Below are positions 19,994 to 60,694 of a stretch of 64,000 nucleotides of DNA, piece by piece. A model generated the notes under the pieces. That model worked only from the letters and a program-made list of their open reading frames with translations. It did no database searches and was not told the DNA's origin. The first letter of the stretch is position 1. Every line of letters begins with the position of its first letter. Position numbers and translations under genes: made by a program. The DNA comes from Cladocopium goreaui. Its lineage: Eukaryota > Sar > Dinophyceae > Suessiales > Symbiodiniaceae. The DNA is taken from NCBI GenBank assembly GCA_947184155.2, contig CAMXCT020000494.1, positions 67,501-131,500 on the forward strand, written 5' to 3'.

Positions 19994-20329
19994 GTGGATC
20001 TTGAATCCAACCTGGCAATGGTGACAATTCCCAAAAAATGCAGATGTTCTTCAAAGAAGATTACACAATAACTGTACGTTAGAATATAGAGTCACATAGA
20101 GCTGATGATGGAATTGTAATTCCATGTGTTTCCATGTTTTTGTCGATGTTTCCCTTAGAAATTTGGATTCTCGGCCACCTTGGACTTCCAAAGTCCATCC
20201 ACTTCGTCGCCAAGGAGCACTGGAAGCCAAATATCCCCAGACAAAGCGCTCCGAGGAATCAAGACCATGTCCTGCGTTCCATGCGACCACGGTGGGATGT
20301 CAGATACCATGTTTGTACGTGTATGTATA

Positions 20330-20520
20330 CAATGTTGTATGTATACATGTGTATATATATATATGTATACATATATATATACATATATATATACATATAT
20401 ATATATACATATATATATATATACATATGCATGTGTATGTATATGTATATATGTATACATATATATATATATATATACATAATTATATATATAATTATAT
20501 ACTACATACATATTATACTT
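20330..20520. repeat. TATATACA microsatellite
   Basis: About 190 bases of alternating TATATACATA/TATATGTATA. Similar AT tracts occur at 7158-7240, 31818-31905, 32065-32190, 36240-36330, 61308-61365 and 62460-62510. Confidence 0.85.
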
Positions 20521-20700
20521 CCATAGAAAAATATGCATAACATACATATCATATCCAAGTCGCTCATTTCTTCGAGACACGGTGTTGCACCAGCAGTTCA
20601 CAGCGATGCTGCCCCGTCTCCTCAGGGCCTTCTTTGTCCGTTTTCATCTTGGTGCCCAGCCTCAGACAAGATTCCAAACGCCGTGATACAGTGCAGTTCA

Positions 20701-20835
20701 GATGAGTTAATCATAGTTAACCATAGTAAACCATAGTTCAGTTGATGATAGTTAATCATAGTCAATCATAGTTAATAATATCATCATAGTTAACCACAGT
20801 TAATGATAGTTCGTCATAGTTATATATCATATATC
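20701..20835 (+). repeat. Degenerate CATAGTTAA repeat at the copia insertion site
   Basis: About a dozen diverged copies of a 9-12-bp unit (atcatagttaa, accatagtaaa, gtcatagttat). The copia element inserted at its right edge. Confidence 0.65.
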
Positions 20836-20840
20836 CATCG
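20836..20840 (+). repeat. Target-site duplication CATCG, left copy
   Basis: CATCG directly precedes the 5' LTR and recurs at 29465-29469 directly after the 3' LTR. Five bases is the normal length for copia integration. Confidence 0.9.
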
Positions 20841-21031
20841 TGTGAAGTGCACTCCATGCACTAGGGTTGTACATGTGATCCTGCGGTGATACCGCGGCAT
20901 TTCCTCTCAAGGGAGGGATAAACTGACGCCTGACGGCGAACGGAAACGCAGCCTTCTCGAAAAAGGCTGTGCCACTACTTTGTGGACTAGGCGGACCAGA
21001 CTTCGAGTGCTGTGTTCCCCCAGACTTCGCA
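20841..21031 (+). repeat. Copia 5' LTR
   Basis: 191 bp, starting TGTGAAGTGCACTCC and ending CCCAGACTTCGCA, identical base for base to the 3' LTR. As in other LTRs it should hold the promoter and, in the 3' copy, the polyadenylation signals. No clear TATA or AATAAA is seen, as is usual in dinoflagellates. Confidence 0.95.
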
Positions 21032-21032
21032 T

Positions 21033-21045
21033 TGGTAGCGGAGCC
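21033..21045 (+). other. Primer-binding site, initiator-tRNA-Met type
   Basis: TGGTAGCGGAGCC starts two bases after the LTR. It resembles the initiator-tRNA-Met complement used by many copia elements (TGGTAnCnGAGC). Confidence 0.7.
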
Positions 21046-21220
21046 AGCTGAGCTTCGTGCTCTTGGCTCTGTTCTGCTCTGCGGAGCCAGCTGAGCTTCG
21101 TGCTCTTGGCTCTGTTCTGCTTTGCTCTGCTCTGGAGCCTGCTGAGCCCTTGTGCTCTTGGCTCTGTGCTGCCTTGGAGCCAGCTGAGCCTTCAGTGCTC
21201 TTGGCTTCGTTCTGCCGCGG
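21039..21220 (+). repeat. 42-bp-type repeats in the copia leader
   Basis: GCGGAGCCAGCTGAGCTTCG begins at 21039 and again at 21081. Two more diverged units (GGAGCCTGCTGAGCCC, GGAGCCAGCTGAGCCTTC) follow. The leader also contains CCTGTGCAGGC twice, a motif that reappears after the ORF near 29200. Confidence 0.7.
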
Positions 21221-21304
21221 CCCTTGCTGAGCTAAGGTCCTGTGCAGGCCTTCTGTGCTTTGCCCTGTGCAGGCAATTGGTGACTGGGAACTACATCCTG
21301 GACT

Positions 21305-24300: not shown

Positions 24301-27300
24301 AGTGGCATCTCTCCTGAAGTCCGAGCGTGGTCCCGACCTGATCAAGGGCCTCGAGCGATGCTGGATCAAGCACTTTGGCATCCACACCAAACTGGTGACG
24401 GACGAAGGGAGAGGATGGTGTGGCACTGAGTTCTCTGAATGGACCACTGACTTTGGTGTCCAACATGAAGTTGCCCCAGGTGAAGCTCACACGCGTTTGT
24501 CTGCAGTTGAGCGCCGACACTCTGTCTTGCGCAAAGCGGCCGAGATCTTCATGACTGACCGCAATCTGGACAACACCACTGGAGTCCGAATGGCTCTGAC
24601 CTATGTGTTGCCCCAGATCAACTCTTCGACAACGGTGGCTGGCTTCAGCCCTATGCAATGGGTCCTGGGCAAGCAGGTGACACTACCTGGTGAACTTTGT
24701 GGTGAACGACTTTCACCTGGCCAACTCGATGGCTACAACTTTGAGAACGTTCTCAAGAACCGCACTGCCGCCAAGACAGCTCTGGCTCAGGCCGAAGAGG
24801 ACTCCAAGCTCCGAAGAGCACTACTCCGACAGTACCAAGGCACCAACTTCCCAATCGAAGTTGGACAGCTTTGCCACTTTTGGCGTGATCAGAGGGAGGA
24901 CAAGCTCACCAAGATCAGATGGCACGGTCCTGCACGTGTGGTGATGCGAGAAGATGATGATCAAGGAGCACCCCACACCTACTGGCTGGCTTGGAAGACA
25001 CAACTGCTGCGATGTGCACCACATCATGTGCGTGCTGACCTAACGTCCATGGCTAACCAGATCGAGGACGCCAAGGAGGCCAAGAAAGCCGTTGCTGGAC
25101 TTCGCTCACGTGGTGTGACGCGCTTCTTGGACTTGGAGCGCATCAACAAGCACAACTTGGACGACTTGGATGATGATGAGATGAGCGATGGAGCAGGAGA
25201 CGATGATGACGATCTCCAACCACCACGACAACGGCGACGCCTTGAAGGCCCTGCTCTACCTGCACAAGGTCTTCCTGCACTACCTGGTCTTGGCGACCCT
25301 GATGATGGCCCACGCACACCTGGGTACTCACCTGGCACACCTGTGGATGAGAATGCCCCCACTGAGGTGGTCCCCAGTGATGATGATGCGATCCTTGTGG
25401 ATCAAGATGCAGCTGCACACCTTCCAGTGCCAGAGCCTGATGAGCTTGAACCTGGACAAGAACCCTCTGTGCCACCGACACCAGCTTTGGCTGCTGCGTC
25501 GAGACCGGCTCTGACTTTGGACCCTGAAACGGCCGCTCTCTACGAGCCTGCCCCTGATGAGACCTTCAACCAGATGCGTCGACGATTTGACGCTCAGGAA
25601 AGCTCTCTCTTTGGTCCAATGAGGCGCAGACACAGACTTCCAGCGCCCTATGAAGAACCACACCGAGCTCCTCGGAGTTCCCAACCACCACAACCTGCTG
25701 AACCTTCTCTACCTCAACAGCCTACTGAAGAACAAGCTCTCTTCAACCATGCCTTCACGGTCACCGACCTTGATGCCGCTGAGCTTCCTCAGGGATGGCA
25801 TGTTGATGAGCAAGGCTACATCCAGCTCGACCTCTCCAAGATGGAAGACTACTGGGAGGTGAAGTCAGGCTGCCTGATCAGGCATCACCTTCGACCTCGG
25901 CGACTACTACATGAGTTTGCTCCTGGTCCTGACTGCCCTGTCACAGCTGACATGCTGGATCCAATCCGGGTGACGATGATGAGATTGCCCAACGGCACCA
26001 CCAATGTCATGACTAACAACATCAACACCCGAGAAAAGCCTATGCCCACAACATGGACTGGCATCACAGTCTACCAACTGACTGGCAAGGTTCGCAAAGA
26101 ACATGCTATGATGGCTACTGCCATGCCTGCGAAAAAGGTGGCCAGACAGCACAAGCACATGACTGCCAAGAAGATCGGCAAGAAACCAGCCGAACTTTCA
26201 GAGCGCAACATGTCGCTTTGGGAAAAGGAGCAGTTCATGGCTGCGAAGGCAAAAGAGCTGAAGAGCTTCTTTGAGCACGGCGTGTGGGAGTTCTCAACAG
26301 AGAAAGAGGCCGACCCGACACGGACACTGTCATCAAGGATGCTCCTGAAGTGGAGTCGCAATCCTGATGGGTCCCCTCGTGCCAAAGCCAGGCTGATAGT
26401 CCGTGGCTATGCTGACCGAGATGCCTTGGAAGGCCGGGTCGAGACTTCAGCACCCACTACGTCGAGGCTCAGCAGATCAATGTTCTTGAGTTTGTCAAGC
26501 TGTTTGAAATGGTCTGGATGGACGGCTGATGTGTCCATTGCCTTCTTGCAAGGTGTCCCACAACAGCGACGCCTTTGGGTCAAACTCCCAGCTGATGCTC
26601 TGGCGATTTTGGGCTGTGAACCTGATGTTCGCATGTTCCTCCACAAGCCGATCTATGGTCAGCTGGATGCGCCCCGAAGATGGTTTTTGGAGGCCTCACG
26701 CCGACTACTTGGTTTGGGTTTCAGAGTACACCCTCTTGACCCTTGCACCTTCCTGCTCTACGAGCAAGACTTTCCTGAAGGTCGTGAACAACCTGCACCA
26801 CCTGAAGAGCTACTTGGACCTCACGGACTTTGTGCTATGGTTTGCATCCATGTGGATGACATGCTGGGTGGTGGCTCTACGAGTTCAAAGGTGTATCAGG
26901 CCAAAGAGGCTGAGCTCAAGCAAGCCTTCAACTTCAGAGAATGGCAGACTGATGCCAAGCTGGAATACTGTGGAGCTTCTTTGGAAAAGACTCCAACTGG
27001 TGGCTGGGCTCTTCACCACGACCCCTTCCTGAAGAAGGTCAAGCCGATCCCTGTGGCACGTGGACGCGGTCCTGATGATGTGATGACTCCTAGCGAGACA
27101 TCTCAACTACGAGCTCTACTTGGCTCACTGCAATGGCCTGCAGTTCAAAGCCAACCGCACTTGCAGTGCTCTACTTCCTTGCTTGCCAGCAACATCAGCG
27201 CTGGACTGGTTCGAAGCCTTCAAGAAGCAAACAAGCTGTTGAAGTTCGCCAAGGACAACAGCGATGTGAAGCTTTGCTATGAGCCTCTGGGTGCTGTGGA

Positions 27301-29173
27301 CTCACTGCGCTTGGTTTGCCAGTTCGATGCTGCCTTCGGCATACGCCGAGACTACTCCTCACAAGGAGGCTGGATCACAATGCTGATCAACCAGAAGGCC
27401 TTTGATGGACAAGAATGTCCATACCACGTCATCGACTGGAAAAGCTCCAAGTTGCCTCGGGTGACACGATCTTCCCTTGGCGCCGAAGCCCAAGCCGCTG
27501 GCCAAGCTGAAGACAGCGTGGATTTCATATGTCGCTTCTGGGAGTGCCTCAAAGACCCCGACGCGACCCTGGCCGAGATCCTGGAGAGACCTTCGTCTCT
27601 TGCACCTGTTTTGGTGACTGACGCCAAAGCCCTGTACGACAGCTTCCATAGAGATGGCTTTGGGACTGGTCTGACTGACCGTCGAACTGCTTTGGAGGTC
27701 AAGGTGATCAAAGAAGGATTACAATCCTTGGGTGGTTCACTACGGTGGCATAGCTCTGAACGGCAGTTTGCCGATGGGCTCACCAAAGAGTCAACACGAC
27801 AGCTCTTAGCTGATCGACTTCGGCATCACCGCCTGAAGTTCACCTGGGACCCCACCTATCAAGCCTCAAAGCGGAAGGATCTCCAAACACGCCTGCAGAG
27901 CCAGAACGAGTTCAGCAAGCCAAAAGAAGATGCTGATGAACATCAGCCTGACCAAGATGACGAAGTTCCTGGCCATGCGACTCACTACATGGAGTCCTAT
28001 GTCTACATGGCTGACCCTGTGGACTATGTCATGGCCGATGAGGAGACCAACCACTATGAGCACTCTGAGCTCTCCATCATGCAAGAGCCTGAGGTCATTG
28101 CCGACCTGACGAACGTCAACACGGCGACCGGGGACTCTGCCACCAGCGCAAGTCGCTCTATGTCTTGGTGGATGAGATGGTTGACGGCATTTTGCTGTCT
28201 GGTCTCCGGGAAGGCGACAGAAGTGCTTCCCTCAAGTTTTGATGATTTTTCCGTGGCACAATGCCCACTACAGATCTATGAGCCGAAGACCGAAGGTCTT
28301 GGATCTGGTTCCTACGTCCTTGACTTCCTCTACGACTTCTCCTATGACATCTTCCTCCTGATCCTCTTCCTCACCATTGTCTTCATTGCCTATAAGGCTG
28401 CATTGGTTTTCGGATGGCATCAGGGCTACCGCTTTGTTTTGCGGCGGCGAGCGGTCAGAGCTGAGCGCTTCGAGCGACTGCTGGAGGAGAAGACGGAAGA
28501 GCTCCACGAAAAGACCGGAGCCCTAAATGAACTGGCAGAGGAACTCAACAGAAAGCTGACTGAGATTGCAAACCTCAATCAGCACATCCAAGATCTACAA
28601 GGTCATCTCGCCAATGCCCAACCAGAACTTCTGCACGCCCTGCAGCAGGAGCGAGCCAAAACAGCCAGACTGCAACTGAACTTACAGGCCTTGGAACAGA
28701 GCTACTTCCAGAAGAACGAACAACTGGTGACGTTTGAGCGACACATCAGGTCTCTCGAGAACTCAATTTCTGAGTACGAGAGGATTCGCACCAGTGGCAT
28801 GCGTGTGATGAACCGGGCCCACAACGAGCTCGAGCACCACTTTAACAGATATCACCGCAATGGTGAGATCTTTGTGGCGAACAGAGGGACGGTGTGGCAC
28901 ACCGATGGAGGATGCTACCACCTCCACAACTCCTTTGTTCGAGAGCTGTGGCCTTGTCAAGCCTGTGCTCAGGATGTGATGACGCCCCACATCCGGAATG
29001 AGAACGGCGTGACGTTGCACAACGCCATGACTGGATGGCTGGTGTCTGCTCAGTTCTTTGACACCTCCAATGCGGATTACCCGATGTTCCCAGTAGTTCC
29101 TGGAGCAGCTCCCTCTTCTGGCAGCGCACCTTCAAATGCAGCTGGCGCCGCGCCTTCTACTGCAGCTAGCTGA
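21305..29173 (+). CDS. Copia Gag-Pol polyprotein, 2,622 residues
   Basis: Start at the first ATG after the leader (MSSAASSAGDTAVTKDNYVP). Domains in order follow. Gag comes first, with an Asp/Tyr-rich stretch (about 205-290) and a zinc knuckle C387-X2-C-X4-H-X4-C400. The aspartic protease has D442-P-G-A instead of DS/TG. A methyltransferase-like segment covers about 650-840 (LWEVCCGEARVAKIAE, SPDCRLWSQMQN with C714, HIEQPELARSW). Integrase has H911/H916/C944/C947 and a D975-D1033-E1069 triad with DD35E spacing. Reverse transcriptase has D1742 in ADVSIAFLQG and HVDD with D1851/D1852. RNase H has D2008, E2061, D2106 and D2157. The C-terminal about 450 residues are extra: a hydrophobic patch at about 2288, a membrane span at about 2347-2370, a coiled coil at about 2379-2495 and a His/Cys cluster (WHTDGGCYHLH, WPCQAC). 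All catalytic residues of integrase, RT and RNase H are present and there are no breaks. Confidence 0.95.
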   Translation: MSSAASSAGDTAVTKDNYVPLFSGAPSDCREWRKRISLYMTKMKLLKREAEGVLNLISSLTGTAWKLVESFPLEDVEKADSFNKVLKLLDKAFEYDNRVQLPGDFDKYFSGFQRHSGQTLLDYCTQHDELYNRLADHKVTLPTQVQGWHLLRRAGLTREQRQLVLTQAPTLEKNKVQETLFLVLGQDFKTVAGHSKGGHRGKGRGYAAFYGDDEADPGQWDESYDYDAEDYSVHYEYDEYYTEYNDSPTHYESPSHHGYYEEDTTGFDDDAAYYGDEAPPEDPQEQAEEYDSAFAAYLDARKRFNDIKLARGYLPIVALSEAGAGLSPGISPSASPSSSPGRGKGKGKPKGKNKGKGGRTTVKYPPRGPGKADPRGRAQAALASTTCLRCGQQGHTTYNCPVPKGSPKKRSAPTESVVGDEHGLVIFLDDRGHERPDCSMLDPGASAFLSGYGPFKRYAEKLREMDFDITQLEFMRCSRTFHFGGDASSQCQWTVKLPMFLAGQFGYVQMYLLKGETPMLMGRPIMEQLGLVLDCGRRCIKLGDMDWQPTVIGAHGEYLLPLLDDYDLAWLAHPPAFELIAPADTEANTTSFKEFNNMENLLEMAPTECASNEGMRPMQRHLLDTCDVHLNELENSLHAYVTNELHNSGNRPRVLWEVCCGEARVAKIAESMGMTVECFGPNTGWDFDDPEHPRAFLERQREEMPDEVYISPDCRLWSQMQNLAARTESQQLELYNKRARHHKVHLKFVAQIYMEQVDNARHAHIEQPELARSWKTTALKDLPGYFTIFHQCMFGSCCLNPVGSWELVKKATALLTSKVTMSVAMNRLCDGQHNHCALEGSASGIGRRTSYMENYQPSLAATLASAIYAPDPPQLWEHAMAVPEQKEVTGRLIQLQTNLKAEAVRTVQRLHRNLGHPSPESLVELLQSRGASDAVVEAARSYKCVACLRYKKPNNPSPATLRQRATELGECVQADVLWLKIGDNKFPVLSVVDTATKYQVASLLKSERGPDLIKGLERCWIKHFGIHTKLVTDEGRGWCGTEFSEWTTDFGVQHEVAPGEAHTRLSAVERRHSVLRKAAEIFMTDRNLDNTTGVRMALTYVLPQINSSTTVAGFSPMQWVLGKQVTLPGELCGERLSPGQLDGYNFENVLKNRTAAKTALAQAEEDSKLRRALLRQYQGTNFPIEVGQLCHFWRDQREDKLTKIRWHGPARVVMREDDDQGAPHTYWLAWKTQLLRCAPHHVRADLTSMANQIEDAKEAKKAVAGLRSRGVTRFLDLERINKHNLDDLDDDEMSDGAGDDDDDLQPPRQRRRLEGPALPAQGLPALPGLGDPDDGPRTPGYSPGTPVDENAPTEVVPSDDDAILVDQDAAAHLPVPEPDELEPGQEPSVPPTPALAAASRPALTLDPETAALYEPAPDETFNQMRRRFDAQESSLFGPMRRRHRLPAPYEEPHRAPRSSQPPQPAEPSLPQQPTEEQALFNHAFTVTDLDAAELPQGWHVDEQGYIQLDLSKMEDYWEVKSGCLIRHHLRPRRLLHEFAPGPDCPVTADMLDPIRVTMMRLPNGTTNVMTNNINTREKPMPTTWTGITVYQLTGKVRKEHAMMATAMPAKKVARQHKHMTAKKIGKKPAELSERNMSLWEKEQFMAAKAKELKSFFEHGVWEFSTEKEADPTRTLSSRMLLKWSRNPDGSPRAKARLIVRGYADRDALEGRVETSAPTTSRLSRSMFLSLSSCLKWSGWTADVSIAFLQGVPQQRRLWVKLPADALAILGCEPDVRMFLHKPIYGQLDAPRRWFLEASRRLLGLGFRVHPLDPCTFLLYEQDFPEGREQPAPPEELLGPHGLCAMVCIHVDDMLGGGSTSSKVYQAKEAELKQAFNFREWQTDAKLEYCGASLEKTPTGGWALHHDPFLKKVKPIPVARGRGPDDVMTPSETSQLRALLGSLQWPAVQSQPHLQCSTSLLASNISAGLVRSLQEANKLLKFAKDNSDVKLCYEPLGAVDSLRLVCQFDAAFGIRRDYSSQGGWITMLINQKAFDGQECPYHVIDWKSSKLPRVTRSSLGAEAQAAGQAEDSVDFICRFWECLKDPDATLAEILERPSSLAPVLVTDAKALYDSFHRDGFGTGLTDRRTALEVKVIKEGLQSLGGSLRWHSSERQFADGLTKESTRQLLADRLRHHRLKFTWDPTYQASKRKDLQTRLQSQNEFSKPKEDADEHQPDQDDEVPGHATHYMESYVYMADPVDYVMADEETNHYEHSELSIMQEPEVIADLTNVNTATGDSATSASRSMSWWMRWLTAFCCLVSGKATEVLPSSFDDFSVAQCPLQIYEPKTEGLGSGSYVLDFLYDFSYDIFLLILFLTIVFIAYKAALVFGWHQGYRFVLRRRAVRAERFERLLEEKTEELHEKTGALNELAEELNRKLTEIANLNQHIQDLQGHLANAQPELLHALQQERAKTARLQLNLQALEQSYFQKNEQLVTFERHIRSLENSISEYERIRTSGMRVMNRAHNELEHHFNRYHRNGEIFVANRGTVWHTDGGCYHLHNSFVRELWPCQACAQDVMTPHIRNENGVTLHNAMTGWLVSAQFFDTSNADYPMFPVVPGAAPSSGSAPSNAAGAAPSTAAS

Positions 29174-29273
29174 TCTGGCCCTGAGCAGGCCGTGCTAAGC
29201 CCTGTGCAGGCTTCTCGCTGGCGATGACGGCCAAAACGGCCATAGATGCTTTTGTTTCACCAATACACCCCCG

Positions 29274-29464
29274 TGTGAAGTGCACTCCATGCACTAGGGT
29301 TGTACATGTGATCCTGCGGTGATACCGCGGCATTTCCTCTCAAGGGAGGGATAAACTGACGCCTGACGGCGAACGGAAACGCAGCCTTCTCGAAAAAGGC
29401 TGTGCCACTACTTTGTGGACTAGGCGGACCAGACTTCGAGTGCTGTGTTCCCCCAGACTTCGCA
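29274..29464 (+). repeat. Copia 3' LTR
   Basis: 191 bp, identical to the 5' LTR, followed by the target duplication CATCG at 29465-29469. Confidence 0.95.
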
Positions 29465-40599: not shown

Positions 40600-40730
40600 A
40601 ACATCTATCATACGTTCAAAACTGCTCAAATGCAAGGCCGCTCTCACTGCATCTTTTTGAGGCCGTAGGGGTGCGTTGTGACAGCTGTTGGCTCTGTTCA
40701 GCAAGTGTCACCTCTGGTGCCGTTTCTCTC
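40600..40730 (-). repeat. Split repeat B2 (outer end)
   Basis: 131 bp, identical to B1 at 40890-41020. It forms the outer 3' end of the element in the minus-strand sense. Confidence 0.9.
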
Positions 40731-40802
40731 AGAGGAACCCTGCCTAATAGAGCTAGCTGTGCTCGTAGGCCTAAAAACCAAATTGGTGCGGGATTGGGAG
40801 GG

Positions 40803-40889
40803 TGTTTTTGGGCAGCTCGAGCCCTTATAGCTACACGTTTGGCAGCTTAACACTTCCTCCAGATGTTCCTGTGCACACATGTGCTACTA
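40803..40889 (-). repeat. Split repeat A2
   Basis: 87 bp differing from A1 (48699-48785) at one base (GTTCCTGTGC versus GTTCCTGCGC). A 72-bp non-repeated spacer (40731-40802) separates it from B2. Confidence 0.9.
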
Positions 40890-41020
40890 AACATCTATCA
40901 TACGTTCAAAACTGCTCAAATGCAAGGCCGCTCTCACTGCATCTTTTTGAGGCCGTAGGGGTGCGTTGTGACAGCTGTTGGCTCTGTTCAGCAAGTGTCA
41001 CCTCTGGTGCCGTTTCTCTC
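40890..41020 (-). repeat. Split repeat B1
   Basis: 131 bp identical to B2. The RNase H frame ends inside it at 40906, so the repeat doubles as its C-terminal codons. Confidence 0.9.
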
Positions 41021-41844
41021 CACACTGGCGCCAGTTCACCCACCCTGCCAGTGTGAGAGGTCTGCATTGGAGCATATTGAAGGTTGAGCACGTCCTGAAG
41101 AGCTTGGCCATGTGCGTATTGGTGATCTGTGGCCACGCTGTGGAGGATGCGGTAGACATTGGCGGTGTCTACTTCCACCCACTCTGCTTCAAGTTCTGCC
41201 ATTTCTTTGAATTGATGTCTGGACACCTGATCGCTGATGTTCATACCTGATGGTACCCACTCCAGGTGCAAGTGCCAGCCGTCATGTGCGATGATTCTCC
41301 ACACCAAAGCTATCATGTTGCAGATGGAGGGGTCCTTACAATATCCTTTCCGGAGCGCAAAGAAGCCTGATGTGTTGTCGATGAATGACAACACGAGGCT
41401 GGATTTCAATTGCCTGCAAAGTAGAAAGCCCAGGAACTGTGCAGCTACCTCCAGAAAGTAGATGAAGGCTTTCCGTGTGCAAAATCGTTTGATCAGCCAA
41501 GGAGGAACTCGTCCTGCTGAATAGAGGGTGCGTCCGCAAAAGTGGATGACGAAACCCCAGCCATTCTCGTAGGTATGGCATTTGGTCTTAAGCCATTGTT
41601 TGGGTATCGAAGAAGATCCCGGTGAGTGTGTCTGGCCACCGATGACGAAGTAGGCGTCGGAGTAAATCACAACAACTGGCTGATTCGGTTGTCGTAGGAT
41701 CTCCCGTGGTTTGATCACTTGCAGCAGGCCCCGCAATGTCAATAGGGCTGAGCGCAAAGTTGAGTTGGCCTGAGTGATCTCCTTCGGACAGACCGTGAGC
41801 CCTGGCATACAGGGGCTGCAGTGCTGCCTTGCCAAGCTGTCCAA
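40906..41844 (-). CDS. RNase H-like domain of the recombinase retroelement
   Basis: A 312-residue frame overlapping the end of the RT frame. It carries the DIRS-type RNase H: VVVIYSDAYF with the first Asp, GWGFVIHFCGRT, RKAFIYFLEVAAQ with the Glu, LVLSFIDNTSGFFAL with the second Asp, and HLEWVPSGMNISDQVSR with the last Asp. It degrades the RNA strand during reverse transcription. The true join to RT is near AACTTTGCGCTCAGCC (about 41750-41765). Skipping one base there fuses RT ...LNFA to SALLTLRG. The first 30 residues of the open frame are therefore probably not used. Confidence 0.8.
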   Translation of the reverse strand: MDSLARQHCSPCMPGLTVCPKEITQANSTLRSALLTLRGLLQVIKPREILRQPNQPVVVIYSDAYFVIGGQTHSPGSSSIPKQWLKTKCHTYENGWGFVIHFCGRTLYSAGRVPPWLIKRFCTRKAFIYFLEVAAQFLGFLLCRQLKSSLVLSFIDNTSGFFALRKGYCKDPSICNMIALVWRIIAHDGWHLHLEWVPSGMNISDQVSRHQFKEMAELEAEWVEVDTANVYRILHSVATDHQYAHGQALQDVLNLQYAPMQTSHTGRVGELAPVWRETAPEVTLAEQSQQLSQRTPTASKRCSESGLAFEQF

Positions 41845-43195
41845 AGAGCGTAGATGTGAGAAACACCAGTTTGCCTGCCAACCGATGTGCTAAGTCACTG
41901 GATAGCATGTTGGTATCCAGTGCTGTCTGGATTGTCTTGCATGCTCTTTGACAGCGATCTGGATGAGGTGAGAGGATGATCTTGTCCTCCTTGATGTGCA
42001 TGATGATGCCCAAGACCTTCTGTTGAGCCGCCGGTGCAAGAGCTTTCCTCTCTTTCATCCGCAGGCCAAGGGTTCGCATCAACCGTGTAAACTCTGAGAA
42101 ACCGCTTTGGACCAGTGGGGCAGGCTCCACGCCTATGAAGTCATCAACATAGTGGCCCAGTGGGGTCCCCAGTAGTCGTCTGCTGAGGAACATGATGCTG
42201 TCAGCAGCCCTGTTGAAGTTCCATACCGAACTCACTGCCCCGAAGGTCATGGCATGGTGTTGCAGCAAAACCGGACCGCCCGGTGTCATGAGGACGCAAT
42301 AACAATCCGTTGGGTCTCGTACCGGAAACTGTCGGTAGGCCCCATCCAGGTCCTGTGCCCACACAAGGGAGGCTTCTTCCCCAGGTGGTGTGGCAAGGGC
42401 CAGCTCCGTGAAGGTCCGTATGTCATGATGATGAGGGACATCATGTGCAATCACGGTGGCATTGTGACCGGACCGACGAAAATCTTCGCATCGCCGGATC
42501 TTGTCAGATTGTACCACGCTGAAGCAGAAGCTGGTGCTGATCTCTTGGCTGGGTAGAGGGCGCAAAGGCATGTCATCGATGGTTGTGGTGGGAACCGGCC
42601 ACCAATCGGGAGCCCGATAAGGCCCAGACATGCGCCCCTTCGCCAGCTCAGTTCGAAGTTCATCCTGCATGGTGGCCCATTCAGGGTCTACCCTCTTGCT
42701 GAGTAACTTCCGCATGGTGTATTGCCTGTTGTTGCGGAGGAAGGCCTCCGAGGTCACAGGAAATTCATATCTGCTGTCTGTTCGTGGGAGCCAACCTGAA
42801 CCGGCATGCAGCTCACCCATCACTTTGAACCCTCGCTGTAGGTCATCGGACAAGTCGTCCAGGCCCGGCATCCGCACAAGGCGGAGTAGGTGTAGGAGCA
42901 ATGGGATCTGAGAGATCTGGTTGTGATCTTTGTTGAAGTAGACTTGGGCGACATGGTGAGGCAAAGATTCCCACCATTGTGTTGTCCCATCTGCCCAGTC
43001 TGATGCCATCTGTTCAATCTCGTCCACAATCTCGGACCTCATGCGAGGGAGGCTGCCGCCAATGATGTTGCGGAGGTCGGCACATTGTTGCAGCCCCGGT
43101 TCAAGCCGGGGGCCGTTGCATTGGGTGTGTCGCCACAATGGCTGCCTTCCAATGTTCCCACATAGATCCTGTCTGGGCGACACAGATGGCCTCAC
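41588..43195 (-). CDS. Reverse transcriptase of the recombinase retroelement
   Basis: 535-residue frame. RT motifs seen: SLVWAQDLDGAYRQFPVRD (catalytic Asp, DIRS-like DLxxAY), GGPVLLQHHAMTFGAVSSVW, and GHYVDDFIGVE with the YVDD box. A thumb segment HRLAGKLVFLTSTLFGQLGK follows. It copies the element RNA. The frame overlaps the DNMT frame by about 95 bases. The two become continuous if one base is skipped in a run of five C (43108-43112), giving ...HPMQRPRLEPGLQQ. The protein is therefore probably made as a DNMT-RT fusion, or the run has gained a base. No independent start is convincing. Confidence 0.85.
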   Translation of the reverse strand: MRPSVSPRQDLCGNIGRQPLWRHTQCNGPRLEPGLQQCADLRNIIGGSLPRMRSEIVDEIEQMASDWADGTTQWWESLPHHVAQVYFNKDHNQISQIPLLLHLLRLVRMPGLDDLSDDLQRGFKVMGELHAGSGWLPRTDSRYEFPVTSEAFLRNNRQYTMRKLLSKRVDPEWATMQDELRTELAKGRMSGPYRAPDWWPVPTTTIDDMPLRPLPSQEISTSFCFSVVQSDKIRRCEDFRRSGHNATVIAHDVPHHHDIRTFTELALATPPGEEASLVWAQDLDGAYRQFPVRDPTDCYCVLMTPGGPVLLQHHAMTFGAVSSVWNFNRAADSIMFLSRRLLGTPLGHYVDDFIGVEPAPLVQSGFSEFTRLMRTLGLRMKERKALAPAAQQKVLGIIMHIKEDKIILSPHPDRCQRACKTIQTALDTNMLSSDLAHRLAGKLVFLTSTLFGQLGKAALQPLYARAHGLSEGDHSGQLNFALSPIDIAGPAASDQTTGDPTTTESASCCDLLRRLLRHRWPDTLTGIFFDTQTMA

Positions 43196-44381
43196 TCGGC
43201 CATCGCCCTGGGCCGATCTGTGGTTCCAGCGGTTGCAGGATGTTCAGCATGGTCTGCATCGCTGTGTGTCTGGGTTGTGGAGCTGGAGTGGCCGCTGCAG
43301 TCATGAGCATGGACTGTAAGACAAGCATCATGATGAACTTGGCCGAGCCGATGTGCCAGCCGTTTGCAAGCATCCGGTGTCTGGCACGTTCCGACACTCC
43401 AGGCACAGCTGTGTACCATCTCGGCAACTGGTGTAGCTGTTCTTTGGCCTCTGGGGGCGGAACAGTCATGCTTCCATCTGCTGCGTGGAGAAGGGCTTCT
43501 GGAGAGTATTGCCACGGAGCGAACGACCGTCCGTCCTGCAGCCACCTTGCCTTCTGCTCCGGGTCGATCTTGCCCCTCAGCTTCTTCGGCGCCGGACGGC
43601 CATCGTCAGATGGGGCCGGGGTTGTCAGGCACGGCATGCGCCTGTCATGCGTCGCCACCGCCGTGTGAAGACGGAGGCCATCCAGCTGCAAGTCTGTCTC
43701 TTCTTGGAGCTGCGTGTCATGGTGGAGGCGGTGGTATTTCTGATTCTTTGACCACCTCAGCCGCTTCCCTGTGATGGGGTTCGTCCGGGTGCGGCTCCAA
43801 TCCACTCGTGTCCACCACAGGCGTGGGCGGTTGATCAGTCCAAAGTCTTGTGCATCAGCCAAGACGGTGTTGCAGTCAAGGAGACCTGCGAAGTGATCTG
43901 CCTCTCCTTTGTCCATCACCACGTTCTCTGTGATGTGGCCCGTCCTCTTGTGAGGTATGTCCATCTCCACCTTGCGGATGAACTCACAGTATGGTGCATC
44001 GTCACGAATTCGTGAGAAATCAGGGCATGGAGGAGCTGATGCAAAGAGCACGAGCTTGGTGCCCTCTGGATCATGACGATGTATAGCACGGGCAACTTCT
44101 GCAGGGTCATCTTTGAGGAAGTCACCACGTATCACTGCCTCTGGATGACGTGCTTTCAGCACCTCCAGGCAATCACTGTCTACCTCCCAGGCAATGTGTA
44201 AAGAGATGTCCGCAACCAAGCCCTTGAGGATCAGTGCAGCCGATCCGATGCCATCAAAGCAGCTGAGAAGAATGACTTCTTCTTCCACTCTCTGAAAAAC
44301 CTGGCCTAACGTGGCCGCTGGTGGTGTGCTGGGTGGAGGGTACCCAGTGTTGTCGGGTGTCATGGGATCCACCTGTCCCAT
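43101..44381 (-). CDS. C5-cytosine DNA methyltransferase carried by the retroelement
   Basis: Transfers methyl groups from S-adenosylmethionine to cytosine C5. All core motifs are visible in order: motif I ILLSCFDGIGSAALILKG, and motif IV FASAPPCPDFSRIRDDAP with the catalytic Cys codon at 44027-44025. Next come motif VI TENVVMDKGEADHF and motif VIII-like DAQDFGLINRPRLWW. Motif X is MLANGWHIGSAKFIMM. A target-recognition region lies between VIII and X. The motif style is closest to DNMT3/bacterial-like enzymes with an NRPRLWW element. The frame is the same as the upstream Gag-like ORF, separated only by a UAG (44399-44397) and five codons, so readthrough would give Gag-DNMT. It looks catalytically intact. 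DNMTs inside dinoflagellate retrotransposons have published precedent. Confidence 0.88.
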   Translation of the reverse strand: MGQVDPMTPDNTGYPPPSTPPAATLGQVFQRVEEEVILLSCFDGIGSAALILKGLVADISLHIAWEVDSDCLEVLKARHPEAVIRGDFLKDDPAEVARAIHRHDPEGTKLVLFASAPPCPDFSRIRDDAPYCEFIRKVEMDIPHKRTGHITENVVMDKGEADHFAGLLDCNTVLADAQDFGLINRPRLWWTRVDWSRTRTNPITGKRLRWSKNQKYHRLHHDTQLQEETDLQLDGLRLHTAVATHDRRMPCLTTPAPSDDGRPAPKKLRGKIDPEQKARWLQDGRSFAPWQYSPEALLHAADGSMTVPPPEAKEQLHQLPRWYTAVPGVSERARHRMLANGWHIGSAKFIMMLVLQSMLMTAAATPAPQPRHTAMQTMLNILQPLEPQIGPGRWPSEAICVAQTGSMWEHWKAAIVATHPMQRPPA

Positions 44382-44396
44382 GACCCCGTGCTGTCC

Positions 44397-45611
44397 CTAC
44401 TTGGACGGCGTCTTCCAATCGGAAGACCATGAATCCTTTTGCCAGGCTTGTTTGTCCTCGTGTCTTGGGGATCCTTGCCATTGGTTCTGCGCTTTGCCAG
44501 ATCGGTCAGAGGCACTCCCAGGCCAAGTCTTGGTTGGCCTTGAGTACGGGCTTGGTCGAGTGCCTTTTCCTGACTTTGTGGAGCCCTTGCCATAACCCTT
44601 CACCTCAGTCTTAGACGGACTGGTGTTGACCGGTTTCTTGGTTGTCTGAGTAGGTTCACGGCTCATGCATTCGGTGAACGAGTCATAGTCTTTCATGATG
44701 ACCGACGTAGCCTCCACAAAGGTGCGGCCCCCACGCATCTCCAGTGCCAGCTTCCAGGAGACTGTCATCCAGAACTGGGCGAGCTGGTCGGTCTTCTGGG
44801 GCCTGCTGCGTACCAGGCGAACAAGCCAGTCGAAGAAGGCATGGACTGCTTGTTCCGTGCCCATCTTGCACAGGATGAAGCACCATCTGATGCTGGCCAA
44901 ACCGTCCAAGATCGCCAAGACACTTCGTGGCTGCCATGGCTCCTCAGGTGCCGCCACCAATTGTTCACCTGTGAGGGTGAGCTTGGTCACGCTGCGCTCC
45001 CTCTTTGCCAACGGGTTGGGCTCACCGTTCGCCTGAAAGGTGCGGATGGAGATCACTTCACCCAGCAGCACCGGCGTGTAAGACTTGCTGGTCTCGTGCT
45101 CGTGTAAGACCCTGGCAATCACAGATTCTGCACCAAGCAGTTCTTGAACCGGGAACACTCTGTCCTGCCCGGCGATCTGCTGCGTCTGAAAGTCCTGGAC
45201 CAGTGATGCCCATCTTCCGGGGGCTAATGTCTTTGGGATCTTGTCCTCAGTGCTGGTTGCAGGAGACCCTGTTGAGGAGTTGGCCGGTGTGGCCGGTTTG
45301 GGCTTGGCTGCGATCTGAGCTGCCTCCCATGCTTGTTTCGCCATCATCCACATGTGCAGCAAGACTGCTTTGGCGATGGGCTTGTCATTCTCAGGAACCT
45401 TGAGGACGGTGCCATCATCACGTGACCATCCTTGGAGAAGGGGTTGGATCAAGGTCTGTTCCAAACTGTCTTCATCCCGGCTCAACAAGGCCAGTGTGGC
45501 CGGTGTCTTGATGCCTCTGAGCTCGAGGTACTCATTGATCACGGCTCCCGCTGCCGCGTCCCTAGCTATGTCAGCCAGTGAGACTGGTGCCAGCGACAAC
45601 ACCATGGTCAC
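44397..45611 (-). CDS. Gag-like protein of the recombinase retroelement
   Basis: 404 residues starting MTMVLSLAPVSLADIARDAA. The N-terminal half is helical (YLELRGIKTPATLALLSRDE; LLHMWMMAKQAWEAAQIAAK). A globular middle (FDWLVRLVRSRPQKTDQLAQ) is followed by a basic Lys/Ser/Gly/Trp-rich tail that could bind nucleic acid. No zinc knuckle. The assignment as Gag rests on position and on the basic tail, not on a recognised domain. It ends in UAG followed by GGA CAG, with the DNMT open in the same frame. Confidence 0.55.
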   Translation of the reverse strand: MTMVLSLAPVSLADIARDAAAGAVINEYLELRGIKTPATLALLSRDEDSLEQTLIQPLLQGWSRDDGTVLKVPENDKPIAKAVLLHMWMMAKQAWEAAQIAAKPKPATPANSSTGSPATSTEDKIPKTLAPGRWASLVQDFQTQQIAGQDRVFPVQELLGAESVIARVLHEHETSKSYTPVLLGEVISIRTFQANGEPNPLAKRERSVTKLTLTGEQLVAAPEEPWQPRSVLAILDGLASIRWCFILCKMGTEQAVHAFFDWLVRLVRSRPQKTDQLAQFWMTVSWKLALEMRGGRTFVEATSVIMKDYDSFTECMSREPTQTTKKPVNTSPSKTEVKGYGKGSTKSGKGTRPSPYSRPTKTWPGSASDRSGKAQNQWQGSPRHEDKQAWQKDSWSSDWKTPSK

Positions 45612-46012
45612 TGTTGGAGTGCGCTGGGTTTCGTTTCAGCCAGGCTGCAGAAGTTATTCATGCATGAAATACCAGAAACTGCAGTCAAAGAATGTACACG
45701 TCCGAAGAAAGTGGCAACTTGGTCCATGGCCGCAGGCTGTTCCGTTGCCAGAAGCAGAATTGAACAGCGAACGAACCACGACCAAGCGCGTCACCAACCC
45801 CAAACGCGAAGGGCAGGAGGTCTCGCATGACTGAACAACCTGATTTAGAAACAGTTGAAAAACCAACGGCCAAAAATCAGCAACAAATGAAAATAAATCA
45901 CAACCCGAACTGAGGAATGCAGAGGTCAACGACTCGTGTCATGTCTGTGGCAAACTGCTGGACTGTCTTTTTCAATGCCTGCTGATCGAGTCAGCTCTCC
46001 CGCTGGAGCTGT

Positions 46013-47721
46013 CTATTCCTCCTCAGCGCTGCTTGCTGAGGAGGCCTCTAATTCGGTAATATCGGACGAGTCATCGCTGCTGTCCGAGCTGGAATCGTTG
46101 CCTAAATTAAAACATTTCCGGCATCGCCTCGCGCCATCCTGCTCATTGGCAGTTCTCAAAAACGTGCGACTGCCGTAGCACCAGCCACATGGTGTCCGCC
46201 ATTTCGACGGTTCGCTGCTGTCCTCATATTGCGAGGCACGATGAAGGATCTTCGCCCTCGGACGAAAGACAAAGGTCTGAGCTGGCACCTGCACGGCCTG
46301 CTTCACCTGCTCAAGTTCTGCCTGCAGACTGCGAACCGCAGCTGCAAAGGCCTTAGGCCTGGCGGCTGGGGGCCTCTGTTGCACGGCCGGTTGGCTCGCC
46401 GAGGCCTTGGGCTCTGGCTGCATGACTTGCATCTGGAGCTTGAATGAGCCAGAGGCCTCCTCTGACAAGACCTGCTGAGGAATGTTCGGAACACGGCTGA
46501 GGGCACTGTCCTGGGTGTACCGCAACACTGCTGTGCTGGTCCACCGACCCAGCAGTTGGATCAGGGCAAGCTCAACCCCTGAGCTCGACAGCATTTGTGC
46601 GCCAGAAACCTCAAAACATGTCCATGATACCGCTGTGTGTCCTGTCCTTCTGGGCCAGGTCGGGTCAGAGAAGTCCCGGTCTTGGCAATGACCCTTCTGA
46701 TGGCCTCGATGAAAGTCTGCTTCGAGGCTGTCTTGCCCTCCTCATCTGGGAAAAGAGGGATACGTGTACGAGAGCCTCCACAGGGGTGTGACTCTAAACG
46801 TAGAAGGTGTCGTTCAGCGCTGTGCCAAACGCACATGCCATGGACCTTCACTCCACAGCTACAAGTGAGGGATCTCTCGGTGAATCTGCCCCATTGGTCG
46901 GTCTTGTGAATCGGGATACTGAGGCAAACCTCATGCCCTTCCAACCTGAGGTCGCAGGCGCGAGCACTGGCCAACTCCGATTCCCGGAGCATGAACCACA
47001 GGCCGATCATGGCCATGTCTCTACAATGTGAGACGTTCGCAAACGAGAAAGGCTCCTCATCCATAGTTGGTGCAATGTTGCCCAACAACAAACCGTTGAA
47101 GGCATCCTTGAGGCGACTCTCACCTAGTCCTCTCTGAATTGAACGAATGCAGTCACGGATGCCCATCTTGACTATGGCGGGAATTGGTGTCTTGAGAGCC
47201 CTTTGCTGATGCCCACAAATGGCCTGAAAATATACGGCGGCACTGCGATACCCTCCCGCTTTCAAGGAGGCCCCGAAACACCTGATGTTCTGGTTGTCCA
47301 AAGGGAAAGCCGCCACCTCCCAGGCACGGCAGATGGCCATGTAGGTCCTGACTCTGGCCTCCACGGCCGGGTTTGTTGACCTGGCGAGGACGTCTTGGTC
47401 CAACATCTGCAGGGACTTCTGTCTCTGATTGGGTAGTGCTGCCTCCAGAGCAGCCTGAAGGCAAGCACGTTTGCCCATGTTTCGAACCGGTAAATCGTCC
47501 CGGTGGGCCTGGCCTGGAGAGGTCACCGGTCCCGCTGCCGGGCTCTCCGAGGCGGCCAATATGGCCTCTAGCTGCCAGTGTGGCACACCAGCACCATGGA
47601 GCGTGTCGTATTGCAACACCAACTGGTTGATACTGACTACGCCGTGGCGGATGAGATCAGGGGCTAATCGTTCCAGGCTGGCCCGTCTTAGGGCGTCCCA
47701 GAGCTCTCCTATGTTCGACAT
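46013..47721 (-). pseudogene. Tyrosine recombinase of the retroelement, one-base frameshift
   Basis: Two frames, 47721-46561 and 46594-46013, together form a DIRS-type tyrosine recombinase, the enzyme that integrates the circular DNA. The first has the Arg box (GLWFMLRESELASARACDLR) and HGHVLR with the second Arg. The second continues SGAQMLSSSGVELALIQLLG and then GRWTSTAVLRYTQD with the nucleophile Tyr. The frame is lost right after HGHVLR at about 46608-46611. One extra G there would join the parts. Beyond the catalytic core is a 150-residue extension with a CX2C...CX2C pair (CGWC, CRKC) and an acidic Ser/Asp/Glu tail. Either a null allele, a sequencing indel, or a programmed shift. Confidence 0.75.
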
Positions 47722-48098
47722 GGTCGGCTGCGATGTTAATCAAATGAATTGCAACTGCATGCAAACAACCACAACATGAGCAAGTAACTCAACAGCAATC
47801 ATGGTGCAAACCTATGAACCTGCCTACAATGGTCATGGACGATTGCAGCAAAGCCAAATGAAGGGCGATGAGCCCACGTGAAATGAAAGAAGCAAACTGA
47901 AACGCTGCACAACTGTAACAACTGGAAGTAGTGATGGAGTCGATCGGTCTGCTGATCAACTTCTTTTTCACTAACGCAAGCTGCATGTCTCAAAATGGCC
48001 GAATTGGCCCGACTGGCATGGATACCGGACGTCGGTGGCACGTCAATGCTAAGCCCGACTGTGACGTGGGTCTGTCTCATGTAGTCCCATCATTGGTG

Positions 48099-48673
48099 TC
48101 ATTGGGTCTGTTGGCCTGCGATCATGGCCATCTGAAGCCTGTCCTGAGTACGCTCGATCAGCGCAGTCTGCATGCGCCACTGGTAACTTTTCAGGATCGA
48201 CTGGATGAGATTCAGGGCAGGGAATATGTCATAATATCTCATTTCTTCTATGGCCAATATGGCCGAGTACATCCTGCGATCGGCACGAGTGCCTGACTCT
48301 GTGTCCTTCTCCAGGCGCCAACGGACCATGCTGTCTGTGGCTAACTCCAATTCGGTTCGAAGCTCTGTCATGCTCTGTGCAATCTCCTGCATCGACGGTT
48401 GGTCCGAGCCCTCGGTCCACGAAAATCACCTTCAGCCATGGCGGCCGTAGATTCCGCGGCCAAGGGGCCAATCACGGCCAACATCTGCACCAGCGTCAGA
48501 CTCAGAGCTCGAATTGGGTTATCTCCACTGAGGGTCCAATGGTCGAGGGCGGCCGTTACGGCCATGAGGAGAAGGCCCACCACCGGGCTCGCAATCGCTT
48601 CTGGGAAGCACGAGTTGCGCGCATTCTGCGCATCTGCAACCTGCTCCATAAGAGCAATGGCGAGGGCAGCCAT
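48099..48673 (-). CDS. First ORF of the retroelement, unknown, one frame change
   Basis: The frame 48673-48368 (MAALAIALMEQVADAQNARN, two hydrophobic helices PVVGLLLMAVTAAL and LVQMLAVIGPLAAES) continues in another frame as 48392-48099 (MQEIAQSMTELRTELELATD, helical). One missing G near 48418 would fuse them as ...DFRG-TEGSDQPSMQEIAQ. I do not recognise the protein. It could be a membrane-associated accessory factor or a Gag fragment. Confidence 0.45.
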
Positions 48674-48698
48674 GGCTCAGTCGAGGTCTACCTGGACC

Positions 48699-48785
48699 TG
48701 TTTTTGGGCAGCTCGAGCCCTTATAGCTACACGTTTGGCAGCTTAACACTTCCTCCAGATGTTCCTGCGCACACATGTGCTACTA
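48699..48785 (-). repeat. Split repeat A1 (outer 5' end)
   Basis: 87 bp, one base different from A2. It forms the outer 5' end of the element in the minus-strand sense. Confidence 0.9.
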
Positions 48786-49003
48786 TACACCATATTTATA
48801 CATCATGGTTTATACATGTGTATACATTTATCATTTATGATTGGTTTATCATTGGTTTATCATGGTTTATACATCCCAGTTTTTGACATGTCTTCGGAAA
48901 TACGATGCTAAACCATGATACACCTCTAAAATCCGGGGTACTGTCTATCCATTTTTTGCATCCAGCTTGTCCGCAAGATGAAATAACAGTTGTGCAGTCA
49001 CCG

Positions 49004-56560: not shown

Positions 56561-56606
56561 GATTTGGGGGACTATCTAGGCGTCGTTGTCTAGCTATTTG
56601 AAATTC

Positions 56607-56965
56607 CGCAGCTTGGAGAGCCTCCAAGGGAGGGAAAAGTGAAAATTCCATAGCTTGGGAAGCTGTCACGGCGGGGAAAAGTGAAAATTCCCTAGCTTGG
56701 GAAGCCCCCACGGGGGGGGAAAGTGAAAATTCCCTAGCTTGGGAAGCTGTCACGCCGGGGAAAAGTGAAAATTCCCTAGCTTGGGGAGCCCCCACGGGGC
56801 GGGAAAGTGAAAATTCCCTAGCTTGGGGAGTCCCCACGGGGGGGAAAAGTGAAAATTCCCTAGCTTGGGGAGCCCCCACGGGGGGGAAAAGTGAAAATTC
56901 CCTAGCTTGGGGAGCCCCCACGGGGGGGGAAAGTGAAAATTCTTAGCTTGGGGAGCCCCCACGGG
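56607..56965 (-). repeat. 42-bp minisatellite, about 8 copies
   Basis: Unit GGGGAAAAGTGAAAATTCCC followed by TAGCTTGGGGAGCCCCCAC(G), 42 bp. Eight or more copies. The period is a multiple of three, so the minus strand stays open as a 14-residue repeat (GAPQAREFSLFPPV). Probably a non-coding satellite, but the open frame spans the array. Confidence 0.85.
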
Positions 56966-57429
56966 GGAAAACCACCCTTAGCCCCTCTCACGGACCGAAA
57001 TAAACCTGCGGTGTGGGCGGCCACCCCACGCGAAGCGGGGTGAATATCCCATGATAAAAGATATCCATTAATGTTCATATGATACTTCATACAACCCGTA
57101 GCATCCATAGCATCCATAGCAGATCTTTAATGCTTCATATATATATATACCATTCTTCATCTCCCCATGATATAGCCATGGTGTCTTGGAACAACTCAGC
57201 TCCAGACCAGGTCCTTTTCGGCCGTCTTTTCGAAGAGATTTGTTCCCTGTCGGACTTTCTGAGGTCAACGAGATTTGGAATGGGGATACAATGGGGATAT
57301 GAAATGGTGTATACACAGCTATGTGTTTGTATATATATATATGTATAATTATGTATAATTATATGTATAATTATATGTGTACAAAGTCTCCCAGGAAAAA
57401 AAAAAACATGGTATAAAGGGGGAAAGAAA

Positions 57430-60390: not shown

Positions 60391-60694
60391 CTGGTTGGTG
60401 GTTGACCTAGCCCTGAAAAATATAAGTTAGTCAATTGGGATCATGAAATTCCCAAGATATGGAAAAATAATCCAAATGTTCCCAAGATATAAAAGTCAAT
60501 TGGGATCATGAAATTCCCCAGATATGGAAAAATAATCCAAATGTTCCCAAGATATAAAAGTCAATTGGGATCATGAAATTCCCAAGATATGGAAAAATAA
60601 TCCAAATGTTCCCAAGATATAAAAGTCAATTGGGATCATGAAATTCCCAAGATATGGAAAGTCATAAAATTCCATGGTTCCAAACCACCAGTGG
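60391..60694. mobile_element. CTGGTTGGTGG hairpin element, internally expanded
   Basis: The ends (CTGGTTGGTGGTT... and ...AAACCACCAGTGG) and inner blocks match the 109-bp element at 4773-4881. The interior has been expanded by a 65-bp tandem repeat to about 304 bp. Confidence 0.5.
60430..60661 (+). repeat. 65-bp tandem repeat, about 3.6 copies
   Basis: GTCAATTGGGATCATGAAAT starts at 60430, 60495, 60560 and 60625, exactly 65 bases apart, with almost no differences between units. Confidence 0.92.

What the first reader, a model, noticed from the sequence alone, without database searches (positions are those of the whole stretch)
40600..48785. Tyrosine-recombinase retroelement carrying a complete C5 DNA methyltransferase
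The element encodes recombinase, Gag-like protein, a DNMT with all core motifs (including PPC and motif X), RT and RNase H inside PAT/Ngaro-style split repeats. The recombinase lies upstream of Gag and RT, unlike classical DIRS or Ngaro and more like VIPER. A retroelement that can methylate its own DNA could shape host silencing or evade it. DNMT capture by dinoflagellate retrotransposons is published; whether this family and this gene order are described I cannot check.
Basis: partly seen in the sequence, partly recalled or inferred. Interest (0 to 1): 0.88.

Follow-up and report, generated by a model that had tools for sequence, protein, structure and literature searches.

The report
Decayed methyltransferase-carrying dinoflagellate retrotransposon
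This is a broken copy of a kind of jumping gene already described from coral-symbiont algae, one that carries its own DNA-methylating enzyme; in this copy the enzyme gene and most other genes are damaged, so it looks like a fossil of a known kind rather than a new system.

Summary
The element is real. On the minus strand, 40600-48789 reads A1 - genes - B1-A2-B2, with B1/B2 131/131 and A1/A2 89/91 identical. The kind is published: SymbioDIRS-Dnmt3 (de Mendoza 2018, PMC5890265) has A-coding-B-A-B repeats, Dnmt3 in the Pol ORF, a separate recombinase ORF, and two structures with shuffled integrase/Pol order; tested enzymes methylate CG in yeast.

"Complete" fails. The window's methyltransferase lacks 12 residues between motifs IV (PPC) and VI (ENV), where motif V lies. 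The spacing is 33 here and at least 39 in all 65 relatives measured, of 87 found. ORF0, recombinase, DNMT/RT and RT/RNase H frames are broken where relatives read on, and a TAG separates Gag from DNMT.

Best reading: a fairly recent but dead YR-first SymbioDIRS-Dnmt3-type insertion in a dinoflagellate genome. Intact relatives probably methylate their cDNA or host CpGs; this copy shows no CpG trace of it. Clade placement, copy number and host species could not be tested.

The parts
40600..48789 (-). Whole element, 8190 nt, A1 - genes - B1-A2-B2
48699..48789 (-). Repeat A1 (5' end)
   Evidence: 89 of 91 identical to A2
48099..48673 (-).
   Evidence: pieces match consecutive parts of P0193, 70% over 76 aa and 68% over 108 aa; P0193 is itself a decayed copy
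46609..47721 (-). Tyrosine recombinase, first frame, up to the HxxR box
   Evidence: P0129 97% identical, 569 aa in one frame
46013..46609 (-). Tyrosine recombinase, second frame, with GRW and candidate catalytic Tyr
   Evidence: aligns to the C-terminal part of P0129
44397..45605 (-). Gag-like ORF ending in TAG (44397-44399)
   Evidence: six of the 194 fetched proteins match it, all six also DNMT hits; no Pfam match
43101..44396 (-). Dnmt3-type C5 methyltransferase ORF, same frame as Gag-like; 12 residues with motif V missing after DDAP
41588..43243 (-). Reverse transcriptase ORF (QDLDGAYR, YVDD)
   Evidence: Pfam RVT_1 E 0.01 for the window, 6.4e-5 best among relatives; 47 relatives
40906..41766 (-). 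RNase H part (candidate acidic residues in YSDA, FLE, FIDN, NISD), frame-broken from RT
   Evidence: P0089, P0093, P0094 carry RT and this part in one frame; no Pfam match
40890..41020 (-). Repeat B1
   Evidence: 131 of 131 identical to B2
40803..40893 (-). Repeat A2
40600..40730 (-). Repeat B2 (3' end)

Best explanation
A fairly recent but inactivated insertion of a YR-first SymbioDIRS-Dnmt3-type retrotransposon in a dinoflagellate genome. Inferred cycle of intact relatives: RNA is copied by RT and RNase H; the split repeats regenerate a circular cDNA whose junction equals B1-A2; the recombinase inserts the circle by site-specific strand exchange without a long target duplication; the Dnmt3 enzyme, made in the same polyprotein as RT, adds 5mC at CpG to the new cDNA and/or to host DNA. 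This copy probably cannot do so: its enzyme lacks the motif V segment and most frames are broken. Shown here: repeats, gene content and order, homology, lesions. Shown by others: CG methylation by SymbioDIRS-Dnmt3 enzymes in yeast (PMC5890265). Inferred: circle, integration, self-methylation, loss of activity.
For: A1-body-B1-A2-B2 repeats, 131/131 and 89/91 identical. Dnmt3-type by profile and fold. DNMT and RT in one frame in P0004, P0008, P0010; DNMT tail through RT to RNase H in one frame in P0089, P0093, P0094. Recombinase P0129 97% identical and intact; PF00589 at 3.1e-6 in P0131, above its cut-off. Names given by sources to relatives: Symbiodinium necroappetens, Symbiodinium sp. KB8, Skav genes. 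Skav210513 (YR) lies upstream of Skav210514 (RT) on one strand, and Skav212377/212378 likewise. Published description matches in repeats, Pol fusion, separate recombinase ORF and shuffled order. Motif V gap and frame breaks.
Against: No SymbioDIRS-Dnmt3 sequence was available, so clade membership is untested. Which of the two published orders this is was not seen. The PPC-ENV spacing could not be measured in 22 of 88 proteins, and a few relatives (P0040, spacing 39; P0019, P0020, P0054, no ENV in range) are disrupted in the same region, so the gap is not proof that only this copy is dead. Three of the 66 recombinase hits counting the window's own ORF end or break within about a dozen residues of one another (window, P0133, P0150), which is unexplained. 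CpG observed/expected is no lower than in the rest of the window, so there is no trace of self-methylation. Loss of activity is not assayed.
Confidence: 0.82

Rival explanations
1. A VIPER-like family distinct from SymbioDIRS-Dnmt3 that captured Dnmt3 on its own: ORF0 would be the Gag, then recombinase, then a Pol with N-terminal domain, DNMT, RT and RNase H.
For: VIPER copies of T. cruzi and C. fasciculata have A1 at the 5' end and B1-A2-B2 at the 3' end (PMC6681497, passages); recombinase before RT as in VIPER (order recalled); ORF0 precedes the recombinase.
Against: Named relatives of DNMT, RT and recombinase are Symbiodiniaceae, where PMC5890265 already reports two architectures with shuffled order.
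Confidence: 0.1
2. An intact element whose frame breaks are sequencing or assembly errors.
For: Repeats are almost identical, so the insertion is young; reads were not available.
Against: At least four frame breaks plus a 36-nt in-frame gap in 8 kb, while a 2629-aa ORF at 21284-29173 of the same window is uninterrupted.
Confidence: 0.06
3. The frame changes and the TAG are programmed (frameshifting, read-through), so the copy is functional.
For: Gag-like and DNMT share one frame around a single TAG; P0002 and P0003 start with Met just past that place; P0133 and P0150 end close to the window's recombinase break.
Against: All 36 of the 66 recombinase relatives that show the HxLR pattern read on in frame; P0089, P0093 and P0094 read DNMT tail, RT and RNase H in one frame. 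It would not explain the motif V gap. For the TAG alone the question stays open.
Confidence: 0.04
4. The DNMT is a host gene or retrocopy that landed in the element by chance.
For: None found.
Against: DNMT is in frame with RT in P0004, P0008, P0010 and with Gag-like sequence in six proteins.
Confidence: 0.01

Closest known systems
SymbioDIRS-Dnmt3 retrotransposons (de Mendoza et al. 2018, PMC5890265; abstract, sections 6 and 7 and passages seen; no figures or supplements)
   Same: A-coding-B-A-B repeats; Dnmt3-type domain in Pol with RT; separate recombinase ORF; one of two structures with shuffled integrase and Pol order; Symbiodiniaceae.
   Different: This copy is frame-broken and lacks motif V. 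A Gag-like part and ORF0 are described here; the paper's main text does not use the word Gag.
VIPER-like elements of kinetoplastids (PMC6681497; passages and section 13 seen)
   Same: A1 ... B1-A2-B2 split repeats; recombinase before RT (order recalled).
   Different: No DNMT mentioned in the passages seen; different hosts; here a Gag-like part lies after the recombinase.
Ngaro-like and PAT-like elements (PMC6681497 passages; rest recalled)
   Same: Split direct repeats in the order A1-B1-A2-B2, recombinase, RT and RNase H.
   Different: Recombinase downstream of RT there (recalled), upstream here.
KnitGypsy-Dnmt3 of Klebsormidium nitens (PMC5890265, passages)
   Same: Dnmt3 domain in a retrotransposon Pol; figure legend reports DIRS-like repeat structure.
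   Different: Gypsy-type domains; reported as an independent capture.

Membership tests
SymbioDIRS-Dnmt3 | A-coding-B-A-B repeats | tested here: met
SymbioDIRS-Dnmt3 | C5 methyltransferase of Dnmt3 type | tested here: met
   Profile: DNMT3 chains 4e-22 to 4e-19, DRM2 2e-5, two chains named only DNA methyltransferase 7e-5 and 2e-4, another C5 enzyme 0.057; fold. No tree with reference DNMTs.
SymbioDIRS-Dnmt3 | DNMT shares the Pol ORF with RT | tested here: inconclusive
   Met in relatives P0004, P0008, P0010; in the window the frame is broken near 43105.
SymbioDIRS-Dnmt3 | Separate ORF for a tyrosine recombinase | tested here: met
   frame-broken in the window
SymbioDIRS-Dnmt3 | Key DNMT residues conserved | tested here: not met
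   PPC and ENV kept, motif V stretch deleted. A lesion of this copy; it counts against an active member, not against descent.
SymbioDIRS-Dnmt3 | RT/DNMT in one of the two published clades | not testable with these tools
   Published sequences not held.
VIPER-like | A1 ... B1-A2-B2 repeats and recombinase before RT | tested here: met
   the order in VIPER is recalled
VIPER-like | RT groups with VIPER/TATE | not testable with these tools
   No VIPER RT sequence held.
Ngaro-like / PAT-like | Recombinase downstream of RT (recalled) | tested here: not met
Intact autonomous element | All ORFs open | tested here: not met

The most novel reading that the evidence does not exclude
Intact relatives make Gag-like, Dnmt3, RT and RNase H as one polyprotein, so the methyltransferase is packaged with RT in the particle and methylates the element's own cDNA before the recombinase inserts it, marking new copies from birth. 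Copies with the motif V deletion would be natural catalytically dead controls, and the 34-member 90% cluster of the window's DNMT could include a lineage that spread with a dead enzyme.
Probability: 0.2. Interest if true: 0.6.

Novelty: new member of a known kind. Interest (0 to 1): 0.27.

Why it matters
Retroelements with their own DNA methyltransferase bear on how dinoflagellate genomes came to be CG-hypermethylated, but that link is already in print (PMC5890265). What this window adds is modest: the anatomy of a YR-first copy, a conserved 5' ORF, protein evidence that a Gag-like part can be fused to the DNMT in relatives, and a copy whose DNMT has lost motif V and could serve as a natural negative control.

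Tried and rejected
Loci of relatives were sought in viral contigs with A1, P0129 and P0089 and in genome contigs with P0089; none encodes a relative. The A2 scan did not run. The genome search for the window's own genome was asked in the same form eight times and never answered, so copy number and genome-wide state are unknown.

Programmed frameshifting was considered because P0133 (389 aa) and P0150 (388 aa) end near the window's recombinase break; their tails differ and 36 of 36 relatives with the HxLR pattern read on, so decay is preferred, but the clustering is not explained. CpG depletion: observed/expected 0.65 in the element, 0.63 in the rest of the window, no signal. One of two A1/A2 differences is a CpG change; n = 1 says nothing. 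The RT profile had no reverse transcriptase among its two PDB matches; NCBIfam gave none for five proteins.

A methyltransferase-like insert suspected by eye in the neighbouring copia ORF was not confirmed: best PDB match E 0.74 and no methyltransferase among eight, no Pfam match, no real profile match to A1, single-sequence model pLDDT 38, no viral contigs relative of the ORF.

My first count of PPC-ENV spacing mis-hit P0003, P0005 and P0006; one search is the corrected count and sets aside 22 of 88 proteins (19 without the PC motif, 3 without EN in range). The homolog searches scored only the 7993, 8000 and 7999 candidates that share most words, so hit numbers are lower bounds.
Full report
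Observation. The element occupies 40600-48789 and is read on the minus strand. Two sets of direct repeats frame it: A1 48699-48789 at the 5' end, then B1 40890-41020, A2 40803-40893 and B2 40600-40730 at the 3' end. B1 and B2 agree at 131 of 131 positions, A1 and A2 at 89 of 91. A2 begins inside the end of B1; 72 nt separate A2 from B2. TGT stands at the left end, at the B1/A2 junction and at the right end, as expected if a recombinase inserted a circle, but three bases prove little. blastn of the element against the window finds only itself and its own repeats.

Genes. Stop-to-stop ORFs and marker positions give the order 5' to 3': ORF0 (about 48673-48099, two frames), tyrosine recombinase (47721-46013, two frames), Gag-like (45605-44397), DNMT (44396-43101, same frame as Gag-like, one TAG between), RT (ORF 43243-41588) and RNase H (about 41766-40906). 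Its two pieces match consecutive parts of one relative, P0193, at 70% over 76 aa and 68% over 108 aa; P0193 itself looks decayed, since it runs on into only part of a recombinase.

Recombinase. 66 relatives. The closest, P0129, is 97% identical and 569 aa long. Phage integrase PF00589 matches P0131 at 3.1e-6 (above its cut-off) and P0129 at 3.5e-5 (below it); the window's own pieces have no such match. In the window the frame changes between the HxxR box and the box with the candidate catalytic tyrosine (residue roles recalled). Of 66 relatives, 36 show the HxLR pattern; all 36 read on in frame and 33 reach the tyrosine pattern. The other 30 lack the pattern; some are truncated, some end normally and so are variants. 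P0133 and P0150 end close to the window's break, which I cannot explain beyond chance.

Methyltransferase. 88 hits, of which P0001 is the window's own protein. A profile of 21 sequences matches DNMT3A at 4.2e-22; the DNMT3 rows end at 4e-19, then DRM2 at 2.1e-5, two chains named only 'DNA methyltransferase' at 6.7e-5 and 2.4e-4, and a bacterial-type 'cytosine-specific methyltransferase' at 0.057. Single-sequence Pfam matches are weak: window 0.036, and 10 of 21 members at 0.1 or better, best 7.8e-8. The model built on the alignment has mean pLDDT 82; the 50 PDB rows printed, of 130 with E <= 0.001, are all DNMT3 entries. So the catalytic region is Dnmt3-like, but not complete. Against P0002 (93% identical) the window lacks 12 residues after PPCPDFSRIRDDAP. 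In the profile alignment that stretch pairs with DNMT3A residues around GLYEGTGRLFF, i.e. motif V (name recalled). PPC-to-ENV spacing was measurable in 66 of 88 proteins: 33 in P0001, 39 in P0040 and 42 to 50 in the other 64. P0040, and P0019, P0020 and P0054 (no ENV in range), are disrupted in the same region, so other decayed copies exist. Model confidence drops to 60 in residues 121-130, the PPC loop just before the gap. Loss of activity is inferred, not shown.

RT and RNase H. 47 relatives. Pfam RVT_1: window 0.01, 6 of 10 members of A2 at 0.1 or better, best 6.4e-5. Of the 47, three (P0089, P0093, P0094) carry all seven marks from the DNMT tail through YVDD to NISD in one frame; P0004, P0008 and P0010 hold DNMT and RT in one frame. 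Hence the frame changes near 43105 and 41750 are most simply lesions of this copy. The TAG is open: six proteins (P0016, P0020, P0054, P0069, P0076, P0077) carry Gag-like sequence and are DNMT hits, but five are eukaryotic gene models that may skip stretches, and near relatives P0002 and P0003 begin with Met just past the TAG position.

Unit in other genomes. Skav210513 (YR, scaffold3045:15362-17098 +) precedes Skav210514 (RT, 20256-22040 +); Skav212377 (YR) precedes Skav212378 (RT) on scaffold1983, with about 3 kb between; what fills it was not seen. By gene names, s2661_g10/g11/g12 are RT, Gag-like+DNMT and YR; s257_g4/g5 Gag-like+DNMT and YR; s2362_g5/g6 RT and Gag-like+DNMT; s1402_g8/g10 YR and DNMT. 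Four contig lengths (369540, 383075, 236583, 531940) recur between the DNMT and YR lists, which suggests shared contigs.

Known or new. PMC5890265 (abstract, sections 6 and 7, passages; no figures or supplements) describes SymbioDIRS-Dnmt3: A-coding-B-A-B repeats, Dnmt3 in Pol with RT, a separate recombinase ORF, two structures with shuffled integrase and Pol order, independent Dnmt3 captures, mostly purifying selection on the DNMT, and de novo CG methylation in yeast by both tested copies. 'Gag' does not occur in its main text. 'SymbioDIRS' occurs in no other paper of the held library. Searches for DIRS + dinoflagellate + retrotransposon (18 papers, 17 listed) and for Symbiodinium + retrotransposon + DNA methyltransferase + copia (2 papers) showed, by titles and abstract openings, no other report of these elements; PMC9998398 (passages) only cites them. 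Split repeats with recombinase before RT also parallel VIPER (PMC6681497, passages and section 13; the ORF order is recalled). I file it as a decayed member of a published kind; membership by tree was not testable.

Mechanism. The split repeats let RT regenerate full ends through a circular intermediate and the recombinase inserts the circle (established for the group, recalled). The DNMT, made with RT in relatives, is well placed to methylate cDNA, as PMC5890265 proposes. Against it here: CpG observed/expected is 0.65 in the element and 0.63 in the rest of the window, and PMC5890265 likewise found no significant CG difference for SymbioDIRS-Dnmt against DIRS elements without DNMT.

Host. Source names of relatives are Symbiodinium necroappetens, Symbiodinium sp. 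KB8 and Skav genes (taken from the name to be S. kawagutii). The window also holds a ribonucleotide reductase small-chain piece, a WD40 protein and a copia element. The species is unknown and the window's genome could not be searched.

Noticed in passing
20841-29464 (+): Apparently intact, very young Ty1/copia element: the 193-nt repeats found at 20839-21031 and 29272-29464 are 193/193 identical, which reads as 191-nt LTRs (TGTGAA...CTTCGCA) flanked by CATCG on both sides; one uninterrupted 2629-aa ORF at 21284-29173 with RVT_2 3.5e-8, rve 4e-8 and a sub-threshold zinc knuckle.
   Followed up: partly
23243-24022 (+): Insert between protease and integrase regions of that copia ORF looks, by eye, like a SAM methyltransferase (VLWEVCCGEARV, SPDCRLWSQMQN, HIEQPEL). 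Sequence, profile and single-sequence fold tests gave no support; PMC5890265 says Symbiodinium copia lacks any DNMT domain.
   Followed up: partly
28172-29170 (+): C-terminal extension of the copia ORF after RT/RNase H: a hydrophobic stretch by eye, then coiled-coil-like sequence with only sub-threshold Pfam matches.
   Followed up: partly
48099-48673 (-): ORF0 at the 5' end of the element, conserved with P0193 and of unknown function.
   Followed up: partly
46609 region and P0133, P0150: Two recombinase relatives end within about a dozen residues of the window's recombinase frame break.
   Followed up: partly
13647-14432 (-), 15445-16575 (-), 8150-8950 (-): Ribonucleotide reductase small chain (3e-81), WD40 protein (6.2e-25) and a dual-specificity-phosphatase-like piece (1.1e-7, just below cut-off).
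   Followed up: no
60429-60660; 56601-56967: Tandem arrays: 65-nt unit, 3.6 copies, 98% matches; 42-nt unit, 8.8 copies, 88% matches, the second reading open on the minus strand as a 14-residue repeat.
   Followed up: no
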